A stretch of 64,000 nt of DNA from Panacibacter microcysteis (GTDB lineage Bacteria > Bacteroidota > Bacteroidia > Chitinophagales > Chitinophagaceae): positions 186,001 through 250,000 of the forward strand of contig NZ_JADWYR010000001.1 in NCBI RefSeq assembly GCF_015831355.1. The letters are read 5' to 3'. The position numbers and the translations under genes are program-made. Below, piece by piece: positions 2,529-26,601 of this stretch. The notes under the pieces are model-generated. The model made no database searches. It was not told the DNA's origin and saw only the letters and a program-made list of their open reading frames with translations. Position 1 is the stretch's first letter; each line of letters begins with the position of its first letter.

Positions 2529-2623
2529 TGCGGCCTGGTGTAACGGTAACATATCCTGCTTCCTCGCTTAATGAGAGGTAAACATAAGCCGGATGTTTTC
2601 AGTTCGAATCTGAAAGTCGCACA
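2529..2623 (+). tRNA. tRNA-like gene with expanded anticodon arm
   Basis: It keeps a near-complete acceptor stem (TGCGGCC with AGTCGCA: six of seven pairs, one of them G-U), a D arm (GTGT/ACAT around AACGGTA, resembling Gln or Glu tRNAs) and a perfect T arm (TTCAG, loop TTCGAAT, CTGAA). In place of a normal anticodon arm, an outer stem ATCC/GGAT encloses about 33 nt that fold further: GCTT with AAGC, then CCTC with GAGG. The apical loop can be drawn as CTTAATG, which would show TAA, but no normal anticodon can be assigned with confidence. It may be a tRNA mimic, a decayed tRNA, or a tRNA with an insertion in the anticodon loop. Confidence 0.5.
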
Positions 2624-2628
2624 GAGGC

Positions 2629-2700
2629 TGGCTTATAGCTCAATGGAAAATGCTACGCTCCGACAGCGATGATGAAAGTTCAAGCCTTTCTAAGCCGACA
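2629..2700 (+). tRNA. Degenerate tRNA-like gene, anticodon uncertain
   Basis: The acceptor stem TGGCTTA/TAAGCCG (seven pairs, one of them T-G) is followed by ACA. The T arm GAAAG-TTCAAGC-CTTTC is perfect. The D region can pair as TAGC/GCTA around a 12-nt loop. The anticodon arm is poor: CGC/GCG with loop TCCGACA would read CGA (Ser), but base 33 is C instead of the otherwise universal T and the outer pairs are mismatched. I consider it unlikely to decode normally. Confidence 0.45.
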
Positions 2701-5005: not shown

Positions 5006-5959
5006 ATGGCATTACTACAGGTACAACATATCAGTAAAAAAGTGAATGACATTATCCTGCTGGATGATATCAGTTTTGAGCAACAGCCATTACAGAAAAT
5101 TGCCATTACCGGAGAATCAGGAGCAGGCAAAACAACTTTGCTGAAGATCATCAGCGGGCATGGGCAGGCTGATAGCGGAACAGTGTTGTTTGAAGCAAAA
5201 AAAGTTGCCGGTTCTGAGGAACAATTATTGCCCGGGCACAAAAAAATTGCATACCTATCGCAGCACTACGAGTTGCTCAATAACTATTATGTGGAAGAAC
5301 TCGTATGGTTTGGCAACCAGCTCAGCGAAGAGAACGCTGGTAAGCTCTTTGACATATGCAGGATCACACACCTGCTCAGGCGCAGAACCAATAAACTATC
5401 CGGTGGCGAAAAACAGCGCATTGCACTTTGTATGTTGCTGGTAAAACAACCGGTGCTGCTGGTGCTTGATGAACCGTTTTCCAATCTTGATCCCATACAT
5501 ACAGATATATTGAAAACCGTATTGGACGAACTGACGGACGGCTTCCAGATAAGCTGCATTTTAACATCGCACGACCCGCACGATACCTTATCATGGGCAG
5601 ATGAAATTATTGTAATGAAGGAAGGAAAGATCGTTCAGCAGGGAGCGCCGGAAGAAATTTATCACACACCGATAAATGAATATGTAGCAGGTATGTTTGG
5701 CAGGTACAATTTGCTTACTGCCAACGATGCTGCAGTATTTGGCATTGAATTAAATGGTAAAACGGTAATGCTGCGGCCTGAAGAGTTTGTGCTAAGTAAA
5801 AACCCCGCAGAAGGCGTAAAAGGCGTAATTGAACAAATGAGCTTTCGGGGCAGTTTTTATGAATTGCAGGTGTTGGCAAATAATGTAAGCGTTGTAGTTC
5901 GCACCATGAGCAATGAATGGCGCAAGGGCGATACAATGTTTATAAAGATCCGGTCTTAG
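5006..5959 (+). CDS. ABC transporter ATP-binding protein with C-terminal TOBE-like domain
   Basis: This 317-residue protein is the nucleotide-binding subunit of an ABC importer of the sulfate/iron/polyamine type. Walker A is GESGAGKTT, the Q-loop YLSQHYELL, the signature LSGGEKQR, Walker B VLLVLDEP and the H-loop LTSHD. The last 80 residues (VMLRPEEF...) resemble a TOBE domain. The start MALLQVQHIS is chosen because the longer frame reads through repeat copy 4 and gives Cys-rich nonsense. No permease or binding protein gene is nearby, so partner and substrate are unknown. The stop overlaps that of the convergent WYL gene by four bases. Its link to the RNA-repair genes may be accidental. Confidence 0.9.
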   Translation: MALLQVQHISKKVNDIILLDDISFEQQPLQKIAITGESGAGKTTLLKIISGHGQADSGTVLFEAKKVAGSEEQLLPGHKKIAYLSQHYELLNNYYVEELVWFGNQLSEENAGKLFDICRITHLLRRRTNKLSGGEKQRIALCMLLVKQPVLLVLDEPFSNLDPIHTDILKTVLDELTDGFQISCILTSHDPHDTLSWADEIIVMKEGKIVQQGAPEEIYHTPINEYVAGMFGRYNLLTANDAAVFGIELNGKTVMLRPEEFVLSKNPAEGVKGVIEQMSFRGSFYELQVLANNVSVVVRTMSNEWRKGDTMFIKIRS

Positions 5960-6987
5960 CCAACACCCGGCTCTTCATTAAAGTAGACTTCATGCATCAA
6001 CCTGATGCGTCTCCTGATACGACGCATAAATGAAGCGGGAGATAAAATTTTCAGCCCTTCACCAAAGCCGATCAGTTCGCGTTCCAGTTCAAAGTTTGGT
6101 ATAACATCGATGCTGAACACTACACCATCCTTTCGTTCCTCCACGATTTTTTGCGACGGATGAACAGGCTTGGTCTTTATATAAGGGGCCTGGTGATAGT
6201 CTGCCAGGAACTCGATATGCAGCGGGCTATCGGCTGCATTGCGGGTTACACCAACAATATCTTTGAAGTAGGTATGCGGATCAAAGTTCTTATGTGCTTT
6301 GTATGGTTCTTGGGTTGCAGTGGTAACCATTTGTATCCTGTCAAGCGCGAAGGTTGCAATCTCTTTTCCTTTTTTGTTCATCCCCAGTACAAACCACCTG
6401 TTACGGTATTCTTTTAAAAGATATGGATAAAATAAAATGTCGCTAGACTGCCTGGCCTTAAAAGACTGGTACGTTAATACTACAGTTGTTTTATTAATAA
6501 TAGCCTTGTATAATCCATCGAGCCACTCAATACCGGTGAGCAATTCATTTTTTTCGAAGTCTATTACAGGTGTTTGCTGATGTTGTTCACTGTATATTTT
6601 GTCTTCCAGTTTGTTCACCATTTCTGTAACCTCATTAAAGTGGCTGAAACCTTTAAATTGCTTCAACAGGTAAGATACTTCCTGCAGAATACTCAAGTCC
6701 TGGGTGGTAAGTGGGATGTTGGTGATGGAATAACCGGGGTATTCGTAGCTGTAATATTTTTTGTCTGTAACGATGATGGGTGCATTATAACCCAGTTTGT
6801 CGCTGCGCATGGCATTAAGATCAAGTCGTATGGTGCGAACGCTCACACCCTTATCGATGCCTTCATACTCGAAAAGTGCGTCGTTACAGGCTTCTATAAG
6901 GTTTTCGATGGTCCACTTGCGGCGGCGGTTTTGCAGGCATTTGTCAATTGTGCGGTAGCGTATCAGGGCATTGCGATTTACCGGCAT
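5956..6987 (-). CDS. WYL-domain transcriptional regulator
   Basis: The 343-residue protein has an N-terminal winged-helix-like region (residues 5-70, with TIENLIEACNDAL and SVRTIRLDLNAMR as recognition-helix candidates) and a WYL domain (about 145-235; NKTTVVLTYQSF, FYPYLLKEYRNRWFVLG, FALDRIQ). It ends with the usual C-terminal extension, ending RRIRLMHEVYF. WYL regulators sense nucleic-acid or nucleotide ligands and often control defence and repair genes. It is transcribed away from the TROVE gene. A perfect 9-bp dyad lies in the shared promoter region, 36 bp before its start, and is a good operator candidate. I infer that it controls the TROVE/Y RNA and perhaps RtcB units. Confidence 0.88.
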   Translation of the reverse strand: MPVNRNALIRYRTIDKCLQNRRRKWTIENLIEACNDALFEYEGIDKGVSVRTIRLDLNAMRSDKLGYNAPIIVTDKKYYSYEYPGYSITNIPLTTQDLSILQEVSYLLKQFKGFSHFNEVTEMVNKLEDKIYSEQHQQTPVIDFEKNELLTGIEWLDGLYKAIINKTTVVLTYQSFKARQSSDILFYPYLLKEYRNRWFVLGMNKKGKEIATFALDRIQMVTTATQEPYKAHKNFDPHTYFKDIVGVTRNAADSPLHIEFLADYHQAPYIKTKPVHPSQKIVEERKDGVVFSIDVIPNFELERELIGFGEGLKILSPASFMRRIRRRIRLMHEVYFNEEPGVG

Positions 6988-7211: not shown

Positions 7212-8735
7212 ATGAAATTCAATTTCAGAATTAAAAACGCAGTAAAAGAAACCACCAACTACGAAGGCGCAAAAGCATTTGTACTTACACCTGCAATGGA
7301 ATTATACACTGCTGTTGTAACAGCCTCTTTGAGTAACCAGTTTTATGAAACTGCAGACAGCAGGCTGCAACGCATCTGCGACCTGATAGAAAAGAATGAC
7401 CCGGAATTTGTAGCTAAACTGGCTATATATGCTCGGGAAGCAATGTACCTGCGCAGCATACCGCTGGTGCTTACTGTAGAACTTGCAAAAAGACACAATG
7501 GTAACGACCTGGTAAGCAGGCTTACCAATCGTGTAGTACAACGGGCCGATGAAGTAACTGAATTGCTTTCTTATTACTCACTTTCAAACGGAAGAGATAA
7601 TGTAAAGCAACTAAACAGGCTAAGCAAACAATTGCAAAAAGGCCTGGCAGCAGCTTTCAACAAATTTGATGAATACCAGTTTGCCAAATACAACCGGGAT
7701 GCCAGTGTAAAACTAAGAGATGCACTGTTCCTGGTGCACCCTAAAGCAAAAGATGACGCACAGCAGGCGTTGTTTGATAAAATTGTGAAAGATGAATTGC
7801 AGGCACCCTATACATGGGAAGTTGAGCTGAGTGCACTGGGCCAGCAAAAGTTTGATTCTGCTGAAGTAAAGCAGGCAGCATTTCGTACAAAATGGGAAGA
7901 ACTGATCTTTAGCAACAAACTTGGTTACATGGCCACATTGCGTAACCTGCGCAATATATTGGGAGCAGCAGTAAGTAAAGAAGCATTGAAAAAAGTATGC
8001 GATTATATTGCTAACGAAAAAGCGGTAGCAAACAGCAAACAATTACCGTTTCGTTTTTTGAGCGCATACCGTGAATTGAAAGAGCTGAGAAATGGCAATG
8101 TATCTAAAGTGCTGGATGCATTGGAAGATGCAGTAGCATTTAGTGCTGCCAACATTGCCGGATATGATGCTGATACCAGAGTTGTAATTGCAGCAGATGT
8201 AAGCGGAAGCATGCAACAAGCTCTAAGTTCAAAAAGCAAAGTACAGAACTATGATATTGGTTTAATGCTGGCCATGTTGCTGCAAAACCGTTGTGAAAAT
8301 GTCATCACAGGTATGTTTGGAGATACGTGGAAAGTGATGAATGTGCCAAAGAAAAATATTCTGGCAAATGTTGATGCATTCTACCGCCGGGAAGGAGAAG
8401 TTGGTTACAGCACCAATGGTTACCTTGTTATTAAAGACCTGTTGCGGCGTAAAAAAGCGGTTGATAAAGTGATGATGTTTACAGACTGCCAGTTGTGGAA
8501 CAGCAATAACACAAGTGAGACTATTGCGGGTTTGTGGAAACAATACAAGCATATAGCGCCGCAAGCAAAACTCTATTTGTTTGACCTGGCTGGTAACGGA
8601 AACACTCCGCTGAACATTGTGCGTGATGATGTATTCCTGGTGGCAGGATGGAGCGATAAGATCTTTGATATACTCGCTGCAATTGAAAAGGGAAGCGATG
8701 CATTGACGAAGATCAACAGCATAACAATTGACTAA
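7212..8735 (+). CDS. TROVE/Ro60-type RNA-binding protein with vWA domain
   Basis: The 507-residue protein is an orthologue of Ro60/Rsr. The TROVE domain (about 1-310) is made of helical repeats that form a ring binding misfolded RNAs in its hole and Y RNAs on its outer face; typical are YAREAMYLRSIPLVLTVELA and the YRELKELRNGNVSKVLDALE region. The C-terminal third is a von Willebrand A fold whose MIDAS motif DVSGSM starts near residue 329. Bacterial Ro proteins help rRNA maturation and RNA decay with exoribonucleases, and are often encoded beside Y RNAs and RtcB, as here. The start is fixed by a strong ribosome binding site. A terminator follows 15 bp after the stop, and the Y RNA array begins about 30 bp later. 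Confidence 0.95.
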   Translation: MKFNFRIKNAVKETTNYEGAKAFVLTPAMELYTAVVTASLSNQFYETADSRLQRICDLIEKNDPEFVAKLAIYAREAMYLRSIPLVLTVELAKRHNGNDLVSRLTNRVVQRADEVTELLSYYSLSNGRDNVKQLNRLSKQLQKGLAAAFNKFDEYQFAKYNRDASVKLRDALFLVHPKAKDDAQQALFDKIVKDELQAPYTWEVELSALGQQKFDSAEVKQAAFRTKWEELIFSNKLGYMATLRNLRNILGAAVSKEALKKVCDYIANEKAVANSKQLPFRFLSAYRELKELRNGNVSKVLDALEDAVAFSAANIAGYDADTRVVIAADVSGSMQQALSSKSKVQNYDIGLMLAMLLQNRCENVITGMFGDTWKVMNVPKKNILANVDAFYRREGEVGYSTNGYLVIKDLLRRKKAVDKVMMFTDCQLWNSNNTSETIAGLWKQYKHIAPQAKLYLFDLAGNGNTPLNIVRDDVFLVAGWSDKIFDILAAIEKGSDALTKINSITID

Positions 8736-8787: not shown

Positions 8788-8819
8788 TAAAAAAGTTCTT
8801 TGAAGATATAATTGATTGT

Positions 8820-8942
8820 AAGGATGTCGTAGGGATGAGTTACTTCGTCTCCAATTCAGGGAAGGATTCTGAAGCAATTCAGAAGAGGTGCAACTCCTCC
8901 GCATGACAGCGTTCCCGTTGCTCAACCCGCTTGTTACTCCTT
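8820..8942 (+). ncRNA. Y RNA-like gene 1
   Basis: The terminal stem AAGGA/TCCTT brackets the conserved strands TGTCGTAG (5') and TTGTTAC (3'), the presumed Ro-binding helix. A second helix GGG-AT-GAG / CTC-AA-CCC and the conserved TTACTTCG follow. The interior has two hairpins; one, GAGG-TGCAACT-CCTC, resembles a T arm, and a short closed stem CGC/GCG follows it as in YrlA RNAs. A classical GGTTCGA T loop is missing, so the tRNA mimicry is weak in this copy. Confidence 0.7.
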
Positions 8943-8954
8943 ATTATTTTATTG

Positions 8955-9053
8955 AAAGGTGTCGTAAATGAGAGGTACTTCGCGGCCATCGTTGGTCGAA
9001 TCCAACCGTTTGTATAAAAAGCAAACGAAAGCTCTTGTTGGCTGTTACCCTTC
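8955..9053 (+). ncRNA. Y RNA-like gene 2 (YrlA type)
   Basis: Terminal stem AAGG/CCTT with one unpaired C; conserved strands GTCGTAA and TGTTAC; conserved GTACTTCG. The interior is a permuted tRNA module: T arm GTTGG-TCGAAT-CCAAC, then a closed acceptor-like stem CGTTTG/CAAACG over a 9-nt loop, then a D-arm-like AGC-TCTTGTTG-GCT. The order T arm, acceptor, D arm is that described for YrlA RNAs. Confidence 0.8.
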
Positions 9054-9086
9054 TCAATTTTTTGGTGCGTAGAGTTTACCCTAAAC

Positions 9087-9174
9087 AAAAGGTGCCGTAA
9101 GTGAGAGATCCTTCGGTAAGGTCTTCGGGACCCGTGGTTCAAATCCACAACTCTTATTGCTTTATCGCCCTTTT
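9087..9174 (+). ncRNA. Y RNA-like gene 3 (short)
   Basis: The terminal stem is AAAAGG/CCTTTT. The conserved 5' strand has changed from GTCGTA to GCCGTA, and the 3' strand correspondingly from TTAC to TCGC, so a U-A pair becomes C-G: direct covariation in the presumed Ro-binding helix. A T-arm-like hairpin GTGG-TTCAAAT-CCAC is present, but I see no acceptor or D arm. Five T follow the stem, as in an intrinsic terminator. Confidence 0.75.
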
Positions 9175-9183
9175 TAAAACTGC

Positions 9184-9245
9184 AGCGTGTCGTAGCACAG
9201 TGATACTTCGACTGAAAATCTAAAGCCACTATGCGTTTATAACCG
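9184..9245 (+). ncRNA. Y RNA-like gene 4 (small, no tRNA module)
   Basis: The conserved strand TGTCGTAG pairs with TTTATAAC, and the next helix GCACAGTG/CACTATGC has seven of eight pairs, capped by about 24 nt that begin with the conserved ATACTTCG. The outer terminal stem seen in other copies is not evident, so the ends are uncertain; this copy may be minimal or decayed. Confidence 0.55.
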
Positions 9246-9255
9246 ATATAATTAT

Positions 9256-9330
9256 ATAGCAGCATTCCAATTGGGTGGATACTTCGTTTGGAACGAAGAG
9301 GCTGCAGGTTCGAGCCCTGCCTACTATACA
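9256..9330 (+). tRNA. tRNA-Pro-like gene (anticodon TGG) inside the Y RNA array
   Basis: It is in normal (not permuted) order. The acceptor is ATAGCAG/CTACTAT (six of seven pairs), with a D loop containing GGG and a perfect anticodon stem CTTCG/CGAAG around TTTGGAA (anticodon TGG). The T arm GCAGG-TTCGAGC-CCTGC is perfect, and A73 is followed by CA. Unusual points are C at position 8, a weak D stem, and A1-T72 where bacterial tRNA-Pro normally starts with a C-G pair. It may be a divergent tRNA or a mimic. Confidence 0.6.
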
Positions 9331-9331
9331 A

Positions 9332-9461
9332 ACAAGTGTCGTAGAGAAGTGTTACTTCGTGGATTATTCTACACAGGTTCGAATCCTGTCATTTCGAAAT
9401 ATCGAAATGTAGCTAAGCGGTTAAGCAAATAACAATAGTCACTTTTCGTTTGTTACCTTGT
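9332..9461 (+). ncRNA. Y RNA-like gene 5 (YrlA type, complete tRNA module)
   Basis: Terminal stem ACAAG/CTTGT; conserved strands TGTCGTAG and TTGTTAC with one unpaired C; helix AGAAGTG/CACTTTT; conserved TTACTTCG. The interior is a permuted tRNA: T arm ACAGG-TTCGAAT-CCTGT, closed acceptor stem CATTTCG/CGAAATG (7 bp, loop AAATAT), then TA and a D arm GCT...AGC with GG in its loop. This is the YrlA architecture. Confidence 0.85.
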
Positions 9462-9478
9462 TACATCATTCAATTCTT

Positions 9479-9621
9479 TACAGGTGTCGTAGATCAGCGT
9501 TACTTCGAATCATAACTCGGCATGTCGCAGGTTCGAGTCCTGCCAGGTCCACCAATAACAAAATAAATGGGCCTGTAGCTCAGTGGCAGAGCAGCGTACG
9601 CTTTTCGCCTATTACCCTGTA
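9479..9621 (+). ncRNA. Y RNA-like gene 6 (YrlA type, CCA-containing acceptor loop)
   Basis: Terminal stem TACAGG/CCTGTA, followed by six T that probably end transcription; conserved strands GTCGTAG and CTATTAC; TTACTTCG; helix AGCGT/ACGCT. The tRNA module comprises T arm GCAGG-TTCGAGT-CCTGC, acceptor strands CAGGTCC and GGGCCTG (7 bp with one G-U) joined by an 18-nt loop that begins ACCA, then TA and a perfect D arm GCTC/GAGC. The ACCA directly after the 3' acceptor strand looks like a retained tRNA 3' end. Confidence 0.88.
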
Positions 9622-9641
9622 TTTTTTAAAAGTATAATTAT

Positions 9642-11403: not shown

Positions 11404-12858
11404 ATGAGCAGGCTAAAAATAACAGCCAAAGAATTGCGTGCTATCGGCTACCCCGAAAGCCCTGTAATTCCCGTGGCGATGAACGTGATGGAAAAACATT
11501 TTAAACATCACACAAAAGAAGCAGCGTTTGATATTTTAAAGGCGGTGTTACAATCGCCAAAAGATTATGCAACGCATGAAACACTGCAACCAATTGCAGA
11601 AAAATTATTGCCAAAAGAAAAGGCAGACGGCGCTGAAATTTCGCTGAACAATGAAGGTGTGCATTTCAACATATTTGGTGCAGACAATATTGAACAGGGC
11701 GCCTTGCAACAAATGTACAGTGCAGCCAAATTGCCGGTGGCAGTTGCAGGTGCCTTAATGCCCGATGCGCATCACGGTTACGGCTTGCCGATTGGTGGTG
11801 TGCTCGCAACAGAGAATGCGGTTATTCCTTACGGCGTTGGTGTTGATATTGGCTGCCGTATGTGTTTAAGCATTTTTGATATAGACGTAAAAGACCTTAC
11901 ACAGCGTGAGGCGTTCTTTACACGTGAACTTGGTGAAGCTACTTTGTTTGGCAGCGGTGCAATGTTTCAGCATGCAGCAGATCATGCAGTAATGGATAAT
12001 GCACTGTTCTACGAAATGCCGCTGTTGAAGAGCCTGCATGGCCGTGCATGGAAACAGTTGGGCTCATCAGGAAGCGGAAATCACTTTGCTGAGTTTGGCA
12101 TTGTTGATGTGCCGGCAACAGATGCTACGCTGAATGTTCCCGCAGGCACCTACGTTGGATTCTTAACGCATAGCGGTTCACGTGCATTGGGCGCCAACAT
12201 CGCCAATCATTATACAAAACTTGCCATGAGCAAACGCCGTTTACCACAGGAAGCAAAGCATCTTGCCTGGTTAACGCTTAATGAAGCAGAAGGCATGGAA
12301 TACTGGCTGGCTATGAACCTTGCGGGTGATTACGCAAGTGCCTGTCACCACATCATACACCAAAAGATTGCAAAACAGTTAGGCCGCAAGCCGATAACGA
12401 TGGTGGAGAATCACCACAACTTTGCATGGAAAGAAAGGTATGATAACAAGGAAGTAATTGTGCATCGCAAAGGAGCCACGCCTGCCGGTAAAGATGTGTT
12501 GGGTATTATTCCCGGCAGCATGACGGCGCCCGGCTTTATTGTAAAAGGAAAGGGCGAGGAAGCGAGCATCAACTCTGCATCGCATGGTGCCGGTAGAAAG
12601 ATGAGCCGCACACAAGCCATGGCAAACATTACGAACAATGCACTCAAAGAAGAACTCGCCAAACACCATGTAAAATTGCTCGGCGGCGGTTTAGATGAAG
12701 CGCCATTTGCGTACAAGGATATTGAAGTGGTGATGCAACATCAGAAAGCATTGGTTGATGTGGTGGGCAAGTTTACGCCAAAGATTGTAAAGATGTGCGG
12801 CGCCGAAACCAACCGTACAAGAAAGAATAATAAAAGAGATGTAGTGGAAGGGGAATGA
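11404..12858 (+). CDS. rtcB: RtcB-family RNA ligase
   Basis: The 484-residue protein has the RtcB signature motifs. These are DAHHGYGLPIGGV from residue 121, GVDIGCRMC (metal-binding Cys near 151), GSSGSGNHFAEFG, HSGSRALGANIANHY, NHHNFAWKE, PGSMTAPGF and SASHGAGRKMSR, which carries the histidine that becomes guanylylated. RtcB joins 2',3'-cyclic phosphate or 3'-phosphate RNA ends to 5'-OH ends using GTP and Mn2+, repairing broken tRNA and rRNA. A roughly 80-residue N-terminal extension (LKITAKELRAIGYPESPVIP) precedes the core. It is cotranscribed with the AbiV-like gene and ends in a strong terminator. No RtcA cyclase or Archease gene is visible in the window. Confidence 0.96.
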   Translation: MSRLKITAKELRAIGYPESPVIPVAMNVMEKHFKHHTKEAAFDILKAVLQSPKDYATHETLQPIAEKLLPKEKADGAEISLNNEGVHFNIFGADNIEQGALQQMYSAAKLPVAVAGALMPDAHHGYGLPIGGVLATENAVIPYGVGVDIGCRMCLSIFDIDVKDLTQREAFFTRELGEATLFGSGAMFQHAADHAVMDNALFYEMPLLKSLHGRAWKQLGSSGSGNHFAEFGIVDVPATDATLNVPAGTYVGFLTHSGSRALGANIANHYTKLAMSKRRLPQEAKHLAWLTLNEAEGMEYWLAMNLAGDYASACHHIIHQKIAKQLGRKPITMVENHHNFAWKERYDNKEVIVHRKGATPAGKDVLGIIPGSMTAPGFIVKGKGEEASINSASHGAGRKMSRTQAMANITNNALKEELAKHHVKLLGGGLDEAPFAYKDIEVVMQHQKALVDVVGKFTPKIVKMCGAETNRTRKNNKRDVVEGE

Positions 12859-14856: not shown

Positions 14857-15399
14857 ATGCTCACGGAAAACCAAACCACTCATCTTTCCAAACTTCTCTC
14901 CTATATTCTTCGCCACAAACCAGGAGAATATGGAATTGTATTAGATGAAAACGGCTATGCAAATGTTGATGAACTCATTCAAAGACTTAACGAGCATCAT
15001 GTAAATATTGATTTCGCTACACTGCAACACATTGTAGATACCAATAACAAAAAACGTTTTGCATTCAATGAGGATGGCACCAAAATAAGAGCAAGCCAGG
15101 GTCATTCAGTTGGGGTTGAATTAGGTTATACAGAACAACAACCGCCGGCCATTTTATACCACGGCACGGTCGAAAAATTTCTTGCATCAATCATGAAGGA
15201 TGGTTTGCAAAAAATGAATCGGCATCATGTACATTTAAGCGCAGATACAACAACCGCCACAAAAGTTGCTGAGCGAAGAGGTAAACCAATTATACTGGAA
15301 ATAAAAGCCGGTGAAATGTTTGCAGCAGGTTATGCATTTTATCTTTCAGCTAATGGTGTTTGGTTAACGGAGCATGTACACGTTGACTTTATACTATAA
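14857..15399 (+). CDS. kptA: RNA 2'-phosphotransferase (KptA/Tpt1 family)
   Basis: The 180-residue protein has the family's normal length and motifs: LSKLLSYILRHKPGEYGI at residues 10-27 (catalytic Arg-His), a winged-helix N-lobe, NKKRFAF, LYHGTVEKFLASIMKDGL (the NAD+-binding H-G-T) and RHHVHLSAD. The enzyme moves a 2'-phosphate from an RNA splice junction to NAD+, giving ADP-ribose 1'',2''-cyclic phosphate. RtcB does not leave such a phosphate, so in bacteria the substrate is unclear; damaged or capped RNA ends have been suggested. It is a single gene, 28 bp after the pseudogene, and completes the RNA-repair gene set. Confidence 0.93.
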   Translation: MLTENQTTHLSKLLSYILRHKPGEYGIVLDENGYANVDELIQRLNEHHVNIDFATLQHIVDTNNKKRFAFNEDGTKIRASQGHSVGVELGYTEQQPPAILYHGTVEKFLASIMKDGLQKMNRHHVHLSADTTTATKVAERRGKPIILEIKAGEMFAAGYAFYLSANGVWLTEHVHVDFIL

Positions 15400-24210: not shown

Positions 24211-26601
24211 TTATTTAGCAACGGCAATTCTTGATGTTATTATTTCATTTGTTGCATGATCTTTTACTTCGAGTATATATAACCCATTGGCAAAAGCTGC
24301 TACATCAATCTTGCTGTTATTAACAGATGCCGCAGGTACATTTGCTTTACTCCAGACAATTGCACTGTTCATATTGCGCAGGGTGAGTGAAACTTTATTG
24401 TTTGCGTTCATATTGCTCAGCTGTATTGTAAATGCAGTAGTAACAGGGTTTGGATATATACGAACATTCAACTTATCCTGCTGTACCGGTTTTACAGTAA
24501 CACCGCTTTCAACAACATTGCCCGCCAGAGCTGCGGTTGTAGTGAAGGCAACACTATCGGTATAATTTCCGATTGCAGACAGGTTATTGGCACTGTCGGC
24601 TGAAGCTACGCGCCAGAAATATTGTGTACCTCCGGTAAGGTTTCTAATAATAAGGAACGTTGTATTGCCATTGGTATTGGTGGTTACCCACGCGGTATCT
24701 GTTGCCTTACGATACTTAACGCTGAAATATTTTGCGCACGTAACTGTGTTCCAGTTTAGCCTTGCCTGTACATTGGTAATGGCTGTTGTTCTTGTATTGG
24801 TTGGTATGGGTACCAAAGCGACGTTTGTGCTGCGCCCGAATGCACTGCCTGTTGCGCCATCGCCAAAGACAGTGGCATAATACACACCTGAAGGTAAATT
24901 GGTGTAGGTGAAATTTGCGGTATTGTTTACCGTTCTTACAGCATTATACGCCACGCCGTTGCGGTACAGTTGTACCCTGTATGGAGCTTTGCTTTTTGTA
25001 CATCTGAATGTTATACTGCTGGCACTGTCGCAGGCTGCCGATACCGTGGTACTTTGAACAGTTATAACGGCTTTTGTTTGTGTAAATGTAGGCGTGATGC
25101 TATAAGGCTGAAAATCGCTGGCATAATAACATCTTATTTTAACCCAGTAATAACCCTGCGACAAGGCGGAAAGGTTAGCGGTAAGCACGCCTGCATTGGT
25201 ATAGGTATTATATAGCGGCGCAGCATTCGTGTCTTTGTAAATAGTCATGTATGTATAATTATAACCGCTGGTAAAAGGATCTTCAAAATTGAGCGTAACG
25301 GTCATTGTTCCATTTTGACTGCCTGTGTAGTTTATCTTATGCCAGTCTGCTGTGTCGCGTTTATTGTTGTAGTAAAAACCAACATGACCACTGTTTGCCT
25401 GGTTTGCAGACAAGGTTTTTGCGAGGTAAGCGCTGCCATTTGGTTCGGCGTCGGTTTTGTTCGTATACTTTTTAAGACTGTCAGTTAATGTATAAGGCGC
25501 AAACTTGTTGTTATAATAACAATTTACCCTTACATAGTAGGTGCCGGCGGCCAGCCCATCTGTATTGATGGTAAATTTACCGGTGCTGTAAGAAGAATTT
25601 AACAAGGAGGTGCCGTTGTTATCAAACAGGTATGCCCAAACATATTCACCAATAGCAGGTGTAAGGGTAAGTGCTATCATACCATCTTCGGGTATGGTAA
25701 CTTTATACCAGTCGAAGGTATCTCTTATATTGTTGTAGTAATAACCAATATGGCCGGTGGCGGTTGAGTTAACACCGAGGTTTACTGCCTGTTCTTTTGT
25801 ATTATTGGCTTCAGGATCGTTTGCCTGTGCAGGCAGGGTTAAAGTATTCGACAATTTATATGGCGCAAACTTGTTGTTGTAATAGCAATTTACCCTGATG
25901 TAGTAGGTTCCTGCTGCCAGCCCGTTCTGGCTTAACGTAAAGGTGCCATTGCTGTATTGTGAATTTAAGAGGGTTGTGCCATTGTTGTCAAACAAATAGA
26001 TCCACACATATTCACCATTGCCCTGGGTAAGTGTAAGGTTTAACTGCCCGTCTGCATTTGTGGTAACCTGCCACCAGTCTGCAGTATCTCTCGCATTATC
26101 GTAGTAATAACCAACGTGGCCGGTTCTGTTTCCTGCAAGTGGCAAAATTTTGGCCTGTGCGCGGCTGTTATTGGGCTCTGCGTCATTGGCATCTGCAGGT
26201 TGCACAAGTGTGTTGCTGATATTATAACTTCCTGTATCGGTACCGTAGTAGGTGTTTACTTTAAGGTAATAAGTACCGGCAGCAAGACCGTCCTGGCTAA
26301 ACGTGAATGCGCCGTTGGAGTACTTTGAGTTGAGCAAGGTTGTACCATTCTTATCATATATATACACCCATGTATACCTGCCCGATAAAGGTGTTAATGT
26401 TACATCAAGCCGGCCATCTGCCGTTGTAGTAACTTTCCACCAGTCTATGTCTCCGGCGGAATTTATTTTTCCTGAATTGCTGCCGTTTGCCGCTAACGTG
26501 TTTGCCGTGGCACTCGTGTTGTTTGGTTCTGTTTCTGCAGCCATTGCCCGTTGCAGCAACAATGAAGCGAACATGAAGAGTAAAATTTTTGCGTGTCTCA
26601 T
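24211..26601 (-). CDS. Secreted protein with four PPC-like domains, FN3 and type IX sorting domain
   Basis: The 796-residue protein has a signal peptide (about 1-21). Four consecutive pre-peptidase C-terminal-like beta-sandwich units (about 22-130, 138-255, 262-380, 385-505) each open with xEPNNT/S and contain DWW(K/Q)VT...LxAGTYYxxVxxYY. An adhesin-like segment and an FN3-like domain (about 600-700; TRTTAITNVQARLNWNTV) follow, and the C-terminal sorting domain is at 715-796 (RIYPNPVTTAFTIQL, GLYILEV). No catalytic domain is visible, so a binding or surface-coat role is likelier than enzymatic. It is monocistronic, between repeat copies 11 and 12. Confidence 0.88.
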   Translation of the reverse strand: MRHAKILLFMFASLLLQRAMAAETEPNNTSATANTLAANGSNSGKINSAGDIDWWKVTTTADGRLDVTLTPLSGRYTWVYIYDKNGTTLLNSKYSNGAFTFSQDGLAAGTYYLKVNTYYGTDTGSYNISNTLVQPADANDAEPNNSRAQAKILPLAGNRTGHVGYYYDNARDTADWWQVTTNADGQLNLTLTQGNGEYVWIYLFDNNGTTLLNSQYSNGTFTLSQNGLAAGTYYIRVNCYYNNKFAPYKLSNTLTLPAQANDPEANNTKEQAVNLGVNSTATGHIGYYYNNIRDTFDWYKVTIPEDGMIALTLTPAIGEYVWAYLFDNNGTSLLNSSYSTGKFTINTDGLAAGTYYVRVNCYYNNKFAPYTLTDSLKKYTNKTDAEPNGSAYLAKTLSANQANSGHVGFYYNNKRDTADWHKINYTGSQNGTMTVTLNFEDPFTSGYNYTYMTIYKDTNAAPLYNTYTNAGVLTANLSALSQGYYWVKIRCYYASDFQPYSITPTFTQTKAVITVQSTTVSAACDSASSITFRCTKSKAPYRVQLYRNGVAYNAVRTVNNTANFTYTNLPSGVYYATVFGDGATGSAFGRSTNVALVPIPTNTRTTAITNVQARLNWNTVTCAKYFSVKYRKATDTAWVTTNTNGNTTFLIIRNLTGGTQYFWRVASADSANNLSAIGNYTDSVAFTTTAALAGNVVESGVTVKPVQQDKLNVRIYPNPVTTAFTIQLSNMNANNKVSLTLRNMNSAIVWSKANVPAASVNNSKIDVAAFANGLYILEVKDHATNEIITSRIAVAK

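What the first reader, a model, noticed from the sequence alone, without database searches (positions are those of the whole stretch)
8820..9621. Six-member Y RNA array supported by covarying stems
Seen: six units share TGTCGTAG...TACTTCG...TTGTTAC. The terminal stems differ in sequence but keep pairing: AAGGA/TCCTT, AAGG/CCTT, AAAAGG/CCTTTT, ACAAG/CTTGT, TACAGG/CCTGTA. In unit 3 the inner strand change T to C is matched by A to G on the other side. Known: bacterial Y RNAs lie next to Ro genes and bind the protein through a conserved helix. An array this large and diverse behind one TROVE gene is, as far as I know, unusual.
Basis: partly seen in the sequence, partly recalled or inferred. Interest (0 to 1): 0.87.

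Follow-up and report, generated by a model that had tools for sequence, protein, structure and literature searches.

The report
Y RNA array mimicking many tRNAs
Behind a bacterial Ro60 (TROVE) gene lies a row of six small RNAs that share a stem expected to bind the protein while their heads imitate pieces of different transfer RNAs; such rows turn out to be normal in the Bacteroidota, and many heads in related bacteria carry a real tRNA anticodon loop, which suggests a tRNA-decoy or tRNA-repair role.

Summary
The array is real. A covariance model built only from other genomes finds all six units at 8816-9624 (E 2.5e-23 to 4.2e-5) and no full-length match elsewhere in the 5.2-Mb genome. Covariation is overwhelming: 34 of 40 pairs change on both sides, score 0.60 against 0.215 in shuffles.

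The heads are tRNA mimics, mostly circularly permuted tRNAs (97 of 189 large units pass a rotation test, 0 of 189 shuffled). The conserved TACTTCG often forms the 5' strand of a rebuilt anticodon stem, followed by an exact tRNA anticodon loop: 16 of 43 distinct small units at one fixed offset, against 0.86 expected. Window unit 4 carries a Phe(GAA) loop and unit 6 a Met(CAU)-like one. The known YrlA consensus has no room for an anticodon hairpin. The loci also carry extra tRNA genes and RtcB.

Best reading: a variant Y RNA family that displays tRNA and anticodon mimics on the Ro ring in a tRNA-damage response. The mimicry is shown; the function is inferred.

The parts
7212..8735 (+). TROVE / Ro60 (Rsr) protein, 507 aa, with vWA domain
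   Evidence: Pfam PF05731 E 1.9e-28 and PF25045 E 1.6e-7; the only TROVE gene of the genome
8750..8788 (+). terminator-like hairpin after TROVE (AAGTAGTGTCCTGTTT / AACAGGATACTACTT + T run)
   Evidence: read from the sequence; not reported by the scanner, so a reading by eye
8791..8803 (+). boxA-like AAAAGTTCTTTGA in front of the array, same as in the genome's own rRNA operon
8816..8946 (+). Y unit 1: Y stem + GGGAA/TTCCC multiloop with T-arm-like hairpin (the GGGGARG..CCCC type common in related arrays)
   Evidence: held-out CM E 3.3e-8; relatives listed
8951..9058 (+). Y unit 2: Y stem + T arm + acceptor-like hairpin
   Evidence: held-out CM E 1.6e-9; fold z -2.5
9084..9177 (+). Y unit 3: Y stem (the C-G member of the covarying pair) + T-arm-like hairpin
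   Evidence: held-out CM E 4.2e-6
9179..9252 (+). Y unit 4: small unit; loop CTGAAAA = exact tRNA-Phe(GAA) anticodon loop after CTTCGA; weak outer stem
   Evidence: held-out CM E 4.2e-5; exact loop
9256..9328 (+). tRNA-Pro(TGG)-like gene, canonical order, between units 4 and 5
   Evidence: Rfam RF00005 46.2 bits; anticodon read from the loop by eye, ARAGORN did not call it
9328..9465 (+). Y unit 5: Y stem + circularly permuted tRNA-like domain (T arm, acceptor CATTTCG/CGAAATG, D arm)
   Evidence: held-out CM E 2.9e-23; rotation test positive; fold z -3.1
9476..9624 (+). Y unit 6: Y stem + circularly permuted tRNA-like domain with encoded CCA, AT-rich linker, D arm and an 8-nt anticodon-type loop ATCATAAC (CAU, Met-like)
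   Evidence: held-out CM E 2.5e-23; Rfam YrlA 41.2 bits, E 1.9e-7; rotation test; MFE shows the same helices
2445..2517 (+). accessory tRNA-His(GTG)
   Evidence: the host has another tRNA-His
2529..2622 (+). tRNA-like with hairpin insertion in the anticodon loop
   Evidence: ARAGORN with intron option
2629..2698 (+). accessory divergent tRNA-like
   Evidence: Rfam RF00005 31.6 bits
2719..2792 (+). accessory tRNA-Phe(GAA)
   Evidence: the host has another tRNA-Phe
5956..6987 (-). WYL-domain regulator, divergent from TROVE (conserved neighbour)
   Evidence: Pfam E 7.7e-13; in 20 of 72 full-flank loci
11404..12858 (+). RtcB RNA ligase
   Evidence: Pfam E 1.1e-78; in 21 of 72 full-flank loci
14857..15399 (+). 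KptA / Tpt1 RNA 2'-phosphotransferase (window only, not a conserved neighbour)
   Evidence: Pfam E 1.4e-53; 0 other loci within the flanks held

Best explanation
The array is a set of Bacteroidota-type Y RNAs. Each RNA closes with a shared stem (variable outer helix, G-C plus covarying N-N' pair, GNCGTAG / UUGNNC motif, inner helix) that by homology binds the TROVE ring; above it sits an exchangeable head that imitates a tRNA. The heads come in several topologies: tRNAs permuted at the anticodon stem, tRNAs permuted at the D loop, heads in which the Y stem takes the place of the acceptor stem, and short heads with only an anticodon-type stem-loop. The most likely role is to hold tRNA-shaped baits and anticodon loops on the Ro ring next to an RNA-repair ligase: decoys or docking modules for enzymes that cut, repair or sense tRNAs during anticodon-nuclease stress. 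Shown here: the stem, its covariation, the tRNA-like heads, phase-locked anticodon loops in many relatives, linkage to TROVE, RtcB and extra tRNAs. Inferred: transcription, TROVE binding, and the decoy or docking function. Identity as Y RNAs about 0.95; the decoy or docking mechanism about 0.5.
For: Held-out CM finds all six units. Strict scan downstream of TROVE in 80 loci: 275 units on the sense strand, 4 antisense, 5.3 in shuffles. Covariation score 0.597 against 0.215 shuffled and 0.11-0.165 slid; 34/40 pairs change on both sides. Rotation test: 97/189 junction-spanning tRNAs against 0/189 shuffled and 3 unrotated. Anticodon loops: small units 16/43 exact matches at offset +1 against 0.86, none at offsets 0, 3, 4, 5 and two at offset 2; large units 19/129 at offsets 0-2 against about 3. 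Rebuilt anticodon stem 113/150 cells paired against 74.7 +/- 5.5 with swapped partners. RtcB in 21/72 loci, divergent WYL regulator in 20/72. 199 accessory tRNAs in 25 loci, 198 on the TROVE strand. Published precedent: Hughes et al. [quoted passage not shown]
Against: No expression or binding data. Only 66 of 281 units have a confidently assigned anticodon loop; many D-loop-opened heads have odd loops. TACTTCG is also conserved in units where it cannot form an anticodon stem, so it has another role too. In the window the anticodon evidence is thin: unit 4 has an exact loop but the predicted minimum-energy fold does not form it, and unit 6 has an 8-nt loop. A PNPase tether as in Deinococcus would explain generic tRNA-like heads without any decoy role.
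Confidence: 0.5

Rival explanations
1. Classical RYPER role: the Y RNAs only tether or gate the TROVE ring for PNPase, as in Deinococcus radiodurans. The tRNA-like head is a generic dock and the variety of heads reflects drift.
For: Same anatomy as known bacterial Y RNAs: stem plus tRNA-like head beside rsr. The PNPase tether is the only studied mechanism (PMC7790460; PMC8394870).
Against: Does not explain phase-locked, exact anticodon loops of many different tRNAs, including short units without any tRNA elbow, nor the rebuilt anticodon stem, nor the many units per locus.
Confidence: 0.3
2. Permuted tRNA genes: the units are precursors that are cut and joined (RtcB is encoded nearby) into working tRNAs, as for the permuted tRNA genes known from some algae and archaea (from memory).
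For: Unit 6 encodes CCA and a linker between the acceptor strands; RtcB in the same neighbourhood; the model's tRNA part also matches junctions of tandem tRNA genes, a plausible origin.
Against: CCA is encoded in only 6 of 100 permuted units; loops with deletions; the anticodon stem is rebuilt from the Y-specific TTCG; small units have no tRNA body; the Y stem is kept in all units.
Confidence: 0.07
3. Sensor or signal role: anticodon nucleases cut the displayed loops, and the fragments or emptied RNPs signal through the divergent WYL regulator, the way RtcR senses tRNA fragments.
For: A WYL regulator is divergent to TROVE in 20/72 loci, the same layout as rtcR beside rtcBA; RtcR senses cut tRNAs (PMC7790460).
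Against: No WYL ligand is known here; YrlA was not a substrate of the anticodon nuclease in Salmonella (PMC7790460).
Confidence: 0.1
4. Decaying accessory tRNA island: the units are pseudo-tRNAs without function.
For: The tRNA-like heads resemble tRNA fragments; several accessory tRNAs score poorly.
Against: Stems kept by compensatory change in dozens of genomes; held-out recognition; strict strand bias.
Confidence: 0.03

Closest known systems
Bacterial Y RNA YrlA (Rfam RF02553; Salmonella, PDB 6CU1)
   Same: Next to a TROVE/Rsr gene and often RtcB; 5'/3' Ro stem; circularly permuted tRNA-like domain with T arm, acceptor hairpin and D arm.
   Different: Below the Rfam gathering score (41.2 against 69). 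Up to about 11 units per locus. The YrlA consensus goes from the Y stem straight to the T arm, while the anticodon-opened units here have 13-19 nt after CTTCG, in many cases with an anticodon hairpin. Other heads are opened in the D loop, replace the acceptor, or carry only an anticodon stem-loop.
D. radiodurans Y RNA / RYPER
   Same: Y RNA beside the Ro gene, proposed tether of the Ro ring (PMC8394870).
   Different: Array of many RNAs with different heads; no PNPase link tested here.
rsr-yrlBA-rtcBA RNA-repair operon of Salmonella
   Same: TROVE + Y RNAs + RtcB, regulator divergent from the operon.
   Different: A WYL regulator instead of RtcR; KptA but no RtcA among the genes of this window that were scanned; added tRNA genes; more and more varied Y RNAs.
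tRNA gene clusters with TROVE genes (archaea, Morgado and Vicente 2019)
   Same: TROVE gene in 20 of 29 archaeal tRNA clusters (PMC6333295); extra tRNA sets here in 25 of 80 loci.
   Different: That paper reports tRNA genes; the Y RNA array and its permuted mimics are not described in the passages read.

Membership tests
Bacterial Y RNA (as a kind) | Encoded next to a Ro60/TROVE gene | tested here: met
   Array starts about 80 bases after the TROVE stop; 74/80 related loci have a strict unit downstream of TROVE
Bacterial Y RNA (as a kind) | 5' and 3' ends form a stem with a conserved Ro-binding motif | tested here: met
   Stem and covarying motif in 281 units, covariation test; that the motif equals the published Ro-binding motif rests on memory, since the primary papers are not held
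Bacterial Y RNA (as a kind) | At least one Y RNA of the species has a tRNA-like domain | tested here: met
   Units 5 and 6 rotate into tRNAs
Bacterial Y RNA (as a kind) | Bound by the Ro60 protein in the cell | not testable with these tools
   needs pull-down or CLIP
Rfam YrlA RF02553 | Score at or above the gathering cut-off (69 bits) | tested here: not met
   Best 41.2 bits, E 1.9e-7; no YrlA hit at gathering in the window or in 10 related loci
Rfam YrlA RF02553 | Head without anticodon hairpin (the model leads from Y stem to T arm) | tested here: not met
   Anticodon-type hairpins between Y stem and T arm in many units, window unit 6 included
tRNA gene (permuted) | Cloverleaf after circular permutation | tested here: met
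   97/189 large units, 0/189 shuffled; this holds for part of the units only
tRNA gene (permuted) | Matured into a translating tRNA | not testable with these tools
   no expression data; CCA encoded in 6/100
RNA-repair operon (rsr-yrl-rtcB type) | TROVE + Y RNA + RtcB in one neighbourhood | tested here: met
   RtcB within 5 kb flanks in 21/72 related loci, so linkage is frequent, not universal

The most novel reading that the evidence does not exclude
Bacteroidota Ro RNPs carry libraries of anticodon mimics: each Y RNA of an array displays the anticodon loop or body of a different tRNA, and the RNP works as a decoy system against anticodon nucleases, alongside accessory replacement tRNAs and an RtcB repair ligase.
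Probability: 0.35. Interest if true: 0.88.

Novelty: new variant of a known kind. Interest (0 to 1): 0.7.

Why it matters
What bacterial Ro60 and Y RNAs do is a long-standing open question; the only studied mechanism is a PNPase tether in one species (PMC7790460). Arrays whose heads carry exact anticodon loops of many tRNAs point to a concrete, testable answer: tRNA decoys or docking modules in the response to anticodon nucleases. The RNA anatomy (Y stem joined to tRNAs opened at several different points) would also be a natural collection of circular permutations of one fold, useful for studying tRNA recognition. Ro60 proteins of commensal Bacteroides are discussed as lupus triggers (papers PMC8319742 and PMC11277228 surfaced but were not read in detail), so knowing which RNAs they carry is of use.

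Tried and rejected
The exact motif GT[CG]CGTA..CTTCG as a scan of relatives gave no hits; replaced by a stem-based scan. Chance repeats: rejected, 275 sense against 4 antisense and 5.3 shuffled. Rfam at gathering: only tRNAs. HEPN-AbiV, PcfJ, ABC, AbiEii and KptA as conserved partners: unsupported, found in 0-2 related loci within the flanks held. The GTACAAGTG element as a regulator of this locus: rejected, it is a repeat spread over the genome. Complementarity between Y anticodons and accessory tRNAs of the same locus: 2 of 17 shared, 5.3 expected; suggestive at best, not claimed. The 12-nt complementarity between unit 1 and the downstream ORF: about what chance gives. Primary papers on bacterial Y RNAs (Chen 2014, Wang 2018, Sim and Wolin 2018, Burroughs and Aravind 2016, Sim 2020) are not in the library, so I could not check how many Y RNAs per locus they list; array size alone is therefore not claimed as new.

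Full report
OBSERVATION. The sequence at 8816-9624 holds six units in the same orientation as the TROVE gene that ends at 8735. A covariance model (R1) built from 42 units of other genomes, with no window sequence in the training set, finds all six: 9476-9624 E 2.5e-23, 9328-9465 E 2.9e-23, 8951-9058 E 1.6e-9, 8816-8946 E 3.3e-8, 9084-9177 E 4.2e-6, 9179-9252 E 4.2e-5. In the whole 5.2-Mb genome the model gives no other full-length match; the two extra partial matches overlap the tRNA-Pro-like gene and a pair of tandem tRNA genes. The gene is the only TROVE gene of the genome.

HOW COMMON. 80 TROVE loci were fetched, nearly all Bacteroidota by record title. A strict scan (outer helix of at least 5 bp flanking GNCGTA and a 3' YTNC motif) finds 275 units downstream of TROVE on the sense strand, 4 on the other strand and 5.3 per shuffle; 74 of 80 loci have at least one. 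With R1, 288 matches in 43 loci and 220 in 37 loci plus 11 viral TROVE loci all lie on the TROVE strand; these counts include some matches to tandem tRNA genes. By my count of the full-length matches the largest arrays (L033, L047) have 10-11 units. So a six-member array is ordinary for the phylum.

STRUCTURE. The stem has a variable outer helix (91 different 5-bp pairs), a G-C pair, a pair N-N' (C-G 153, T-A 96, T-G 16, C-A 3; N' was not used for selection) and an inner helix not used for selection (mostly 7-9 bp, against 4-5 with a partner from another unit). On alignment A1 the full structure (Y stem, anticodon stem, T arm, acceptor, D arm) has 86% paired cells, 34 of 40 pairs with changes on both sides and a covariation score of 0.597, against 0.215 +/- 0.010 in shuffles and 0.11-0.165 when slid. 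The outer helix was part of the selection and the units of A1 had passed the tRNA rotation test, so the N-N' pair, the inner helix and the held-out search are the least biased evidence. The sequences are related, so none of the counts is a count of independent events.

HEADS. Doubling the interior of each large unit, so that all rotations are present, and running ARAGORN gives a tRNA across the junction in 97 of 189 units, 0 of 189 shuffled and 3 unrotated. In 82 the opening lies in the anticodon region; in several (L018, L023, L026, L034, L088) it lies in the D loop and the anticodon arm is kept. L018:6843-6966 and relatives in L020 and L022 keep the normal order of D, anticodon and T arms, with the Y stem in the place of the acceptor stem (read by eye). 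A further type (GGGGARG..T arm..CCCC) includes window unit 1.

ANTICODON LOOPS. Right after the conserved TACTTCG many units carry a 7-nt loop with U33 and a purine at 37. Against a reference set of 115 distinct loops from ordinary tRNA genes, 16 of 43 distinct small units match exactly at offset +1 (0.86 expected from shuffles; 0 at offsets 0, 3, 4 and 5, 2 at offset 2), with loops of Gly(UCC), Arg(UCG), Arg(UCU), Lys(UUU), Phe(GAA), Asp(GUC), Tyr(GUA) and Ser(UGA). Large units match 19 times at offsets 0-2 (about 3 expected), with Met, Asp, Asn, Lys, Ile, Phe, Leu, Glu and Tyr loops. The upper anticodon stem is rebuilt from TTCG(N): 113 of 150 cells pair, against 74.7 +/- 5.5 with swapped partners. 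In the window, unit 4 has the Phe loop CTGAAAA (exact, though its minimum-energy fold does not form it) and unit 6 a CAU loop of 8 nt whose stem is in the minimum-energy fold. 66 of 281 units get a confident assignment. Since TACTTCG is also conserved where it cannot close an anticodon loop, it must have a further role.

SURROUNDINGS. RtcB lies downstream and near 21 of 72 related TROVE genes with full flanks; a divergent WYL regulator is next to 20; a PF04308 RNaseH-like gene near 12. HEPN-AbiV, AbiEii and KptA of this window are not conserved within the flanks held. Ordinary-order tRNA genes crowd these loci: 199 in 25 of 80, 198 on the TROVE strand, mostly Lys(UUU), His, Asn, Phe, Gln, Asp, Pro, Glu and Arg(ACG). 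In the window they are tRNA-His, tRNA-Phe, a tRNA-Pro-like gene and two divergent tRNA-likes; the host has separate His, Phe and Pro genes. A boxA-like AAAAGTTCTTTGA, as in the genome's rRNA operon, precedes the array, which suggests antiterminated transcription of the row (inference).

MECHANISM. Shown: conserved stem, tRNA-like heads, phase-locked anticodon loops, linkage. Inferred: the stem binds the TROVE ring (homology to bacterial Y RNAs); the heads occupy or recruit enzymes that act on tRNAs. Hughes et al. 2020 found that the Salmonella operon responds to cut tRNAs and proposed that the YrlA head may inhibit an anticodon nuclease (PMC7790460). YrlA has no anticodon hairpin in its Rfam consensus; the present RNAs do, which makes the proposal more specific: a set of decoys or docks for different tRNAs.

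NOVELTY. Y RNAs, their tRNA-like domain and its circular permutation are known (PMC8394870; PMC11472068). TROVE genes in tRNA clusters are known (PMC6333295). I found no open-access text on anticodon loops in Y RNAs or on the other opening points, but the primary papers could not be read. I file it as a new variant of a known kind.

Noticed in passing
window 8791-8803; L018, L019, L026, L027, L034, L043, L089: boxA-like (A)GTTCTTTGA between TROVE and the first Y unit in 8 of 75 loci (0.009 expected per locus), the same words as in the genome's rRNA operon; possible antitermination of the array transcript.
   Followed up: partly
window 2529-2622; L018 372-465; L019 1161-1255; L088 7717-7860: Accessory tRNA-likes whose anticodon loop holds a hairpin (CTTCC-hairpin-GGTAA) or a 70-nt insert, beside RNA-repair genes.
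   Followed up: partly
L019 4717-4913, L027 6584-6778, L043 6564-6768, L046 9175-9366, L050 4118-4310, L065 4696-4887, L070 3835-4026, L074 4698-4889, L087 7788-7980: A conserved ~190-nt RNA with tRNA-like ends and an insert of about 100 nt (GCACCGAAA..GTAGGGAAGCG) close to TROVE in 10-11 loci; the L065 copy has no Rfam match up to E 1; absent from this window.
   Followed up: partly
L128, L130, L132, L135, L136, L137, L138: TROVE loci on viral contigs also carry Y units on the same strand.
   Followed up: no
window-wide, e.g. 589, 2197, 2872, 9679, 10646: Repeat GTACAAGTG(A/T)G(T/C)GAC, 13 copies in the window with up to one mismatch (0.03 expected), also at many other places of the genome; unexplained.
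   Followed up: no
tandem tRNA genes, e.g. G000:C1:2223668-2223783: The tRNA part of the Y model matches junctions between tandem tRNA genes (3' half of one, 5' half of the next), a plausible origin of the permuted heads.
   Followed up: partly
window 26232-26390 (+): Weak full-length match to the Y model, 19.6 bits, E 0.0036, far from TROVE; probably chance.
   Followed up: no
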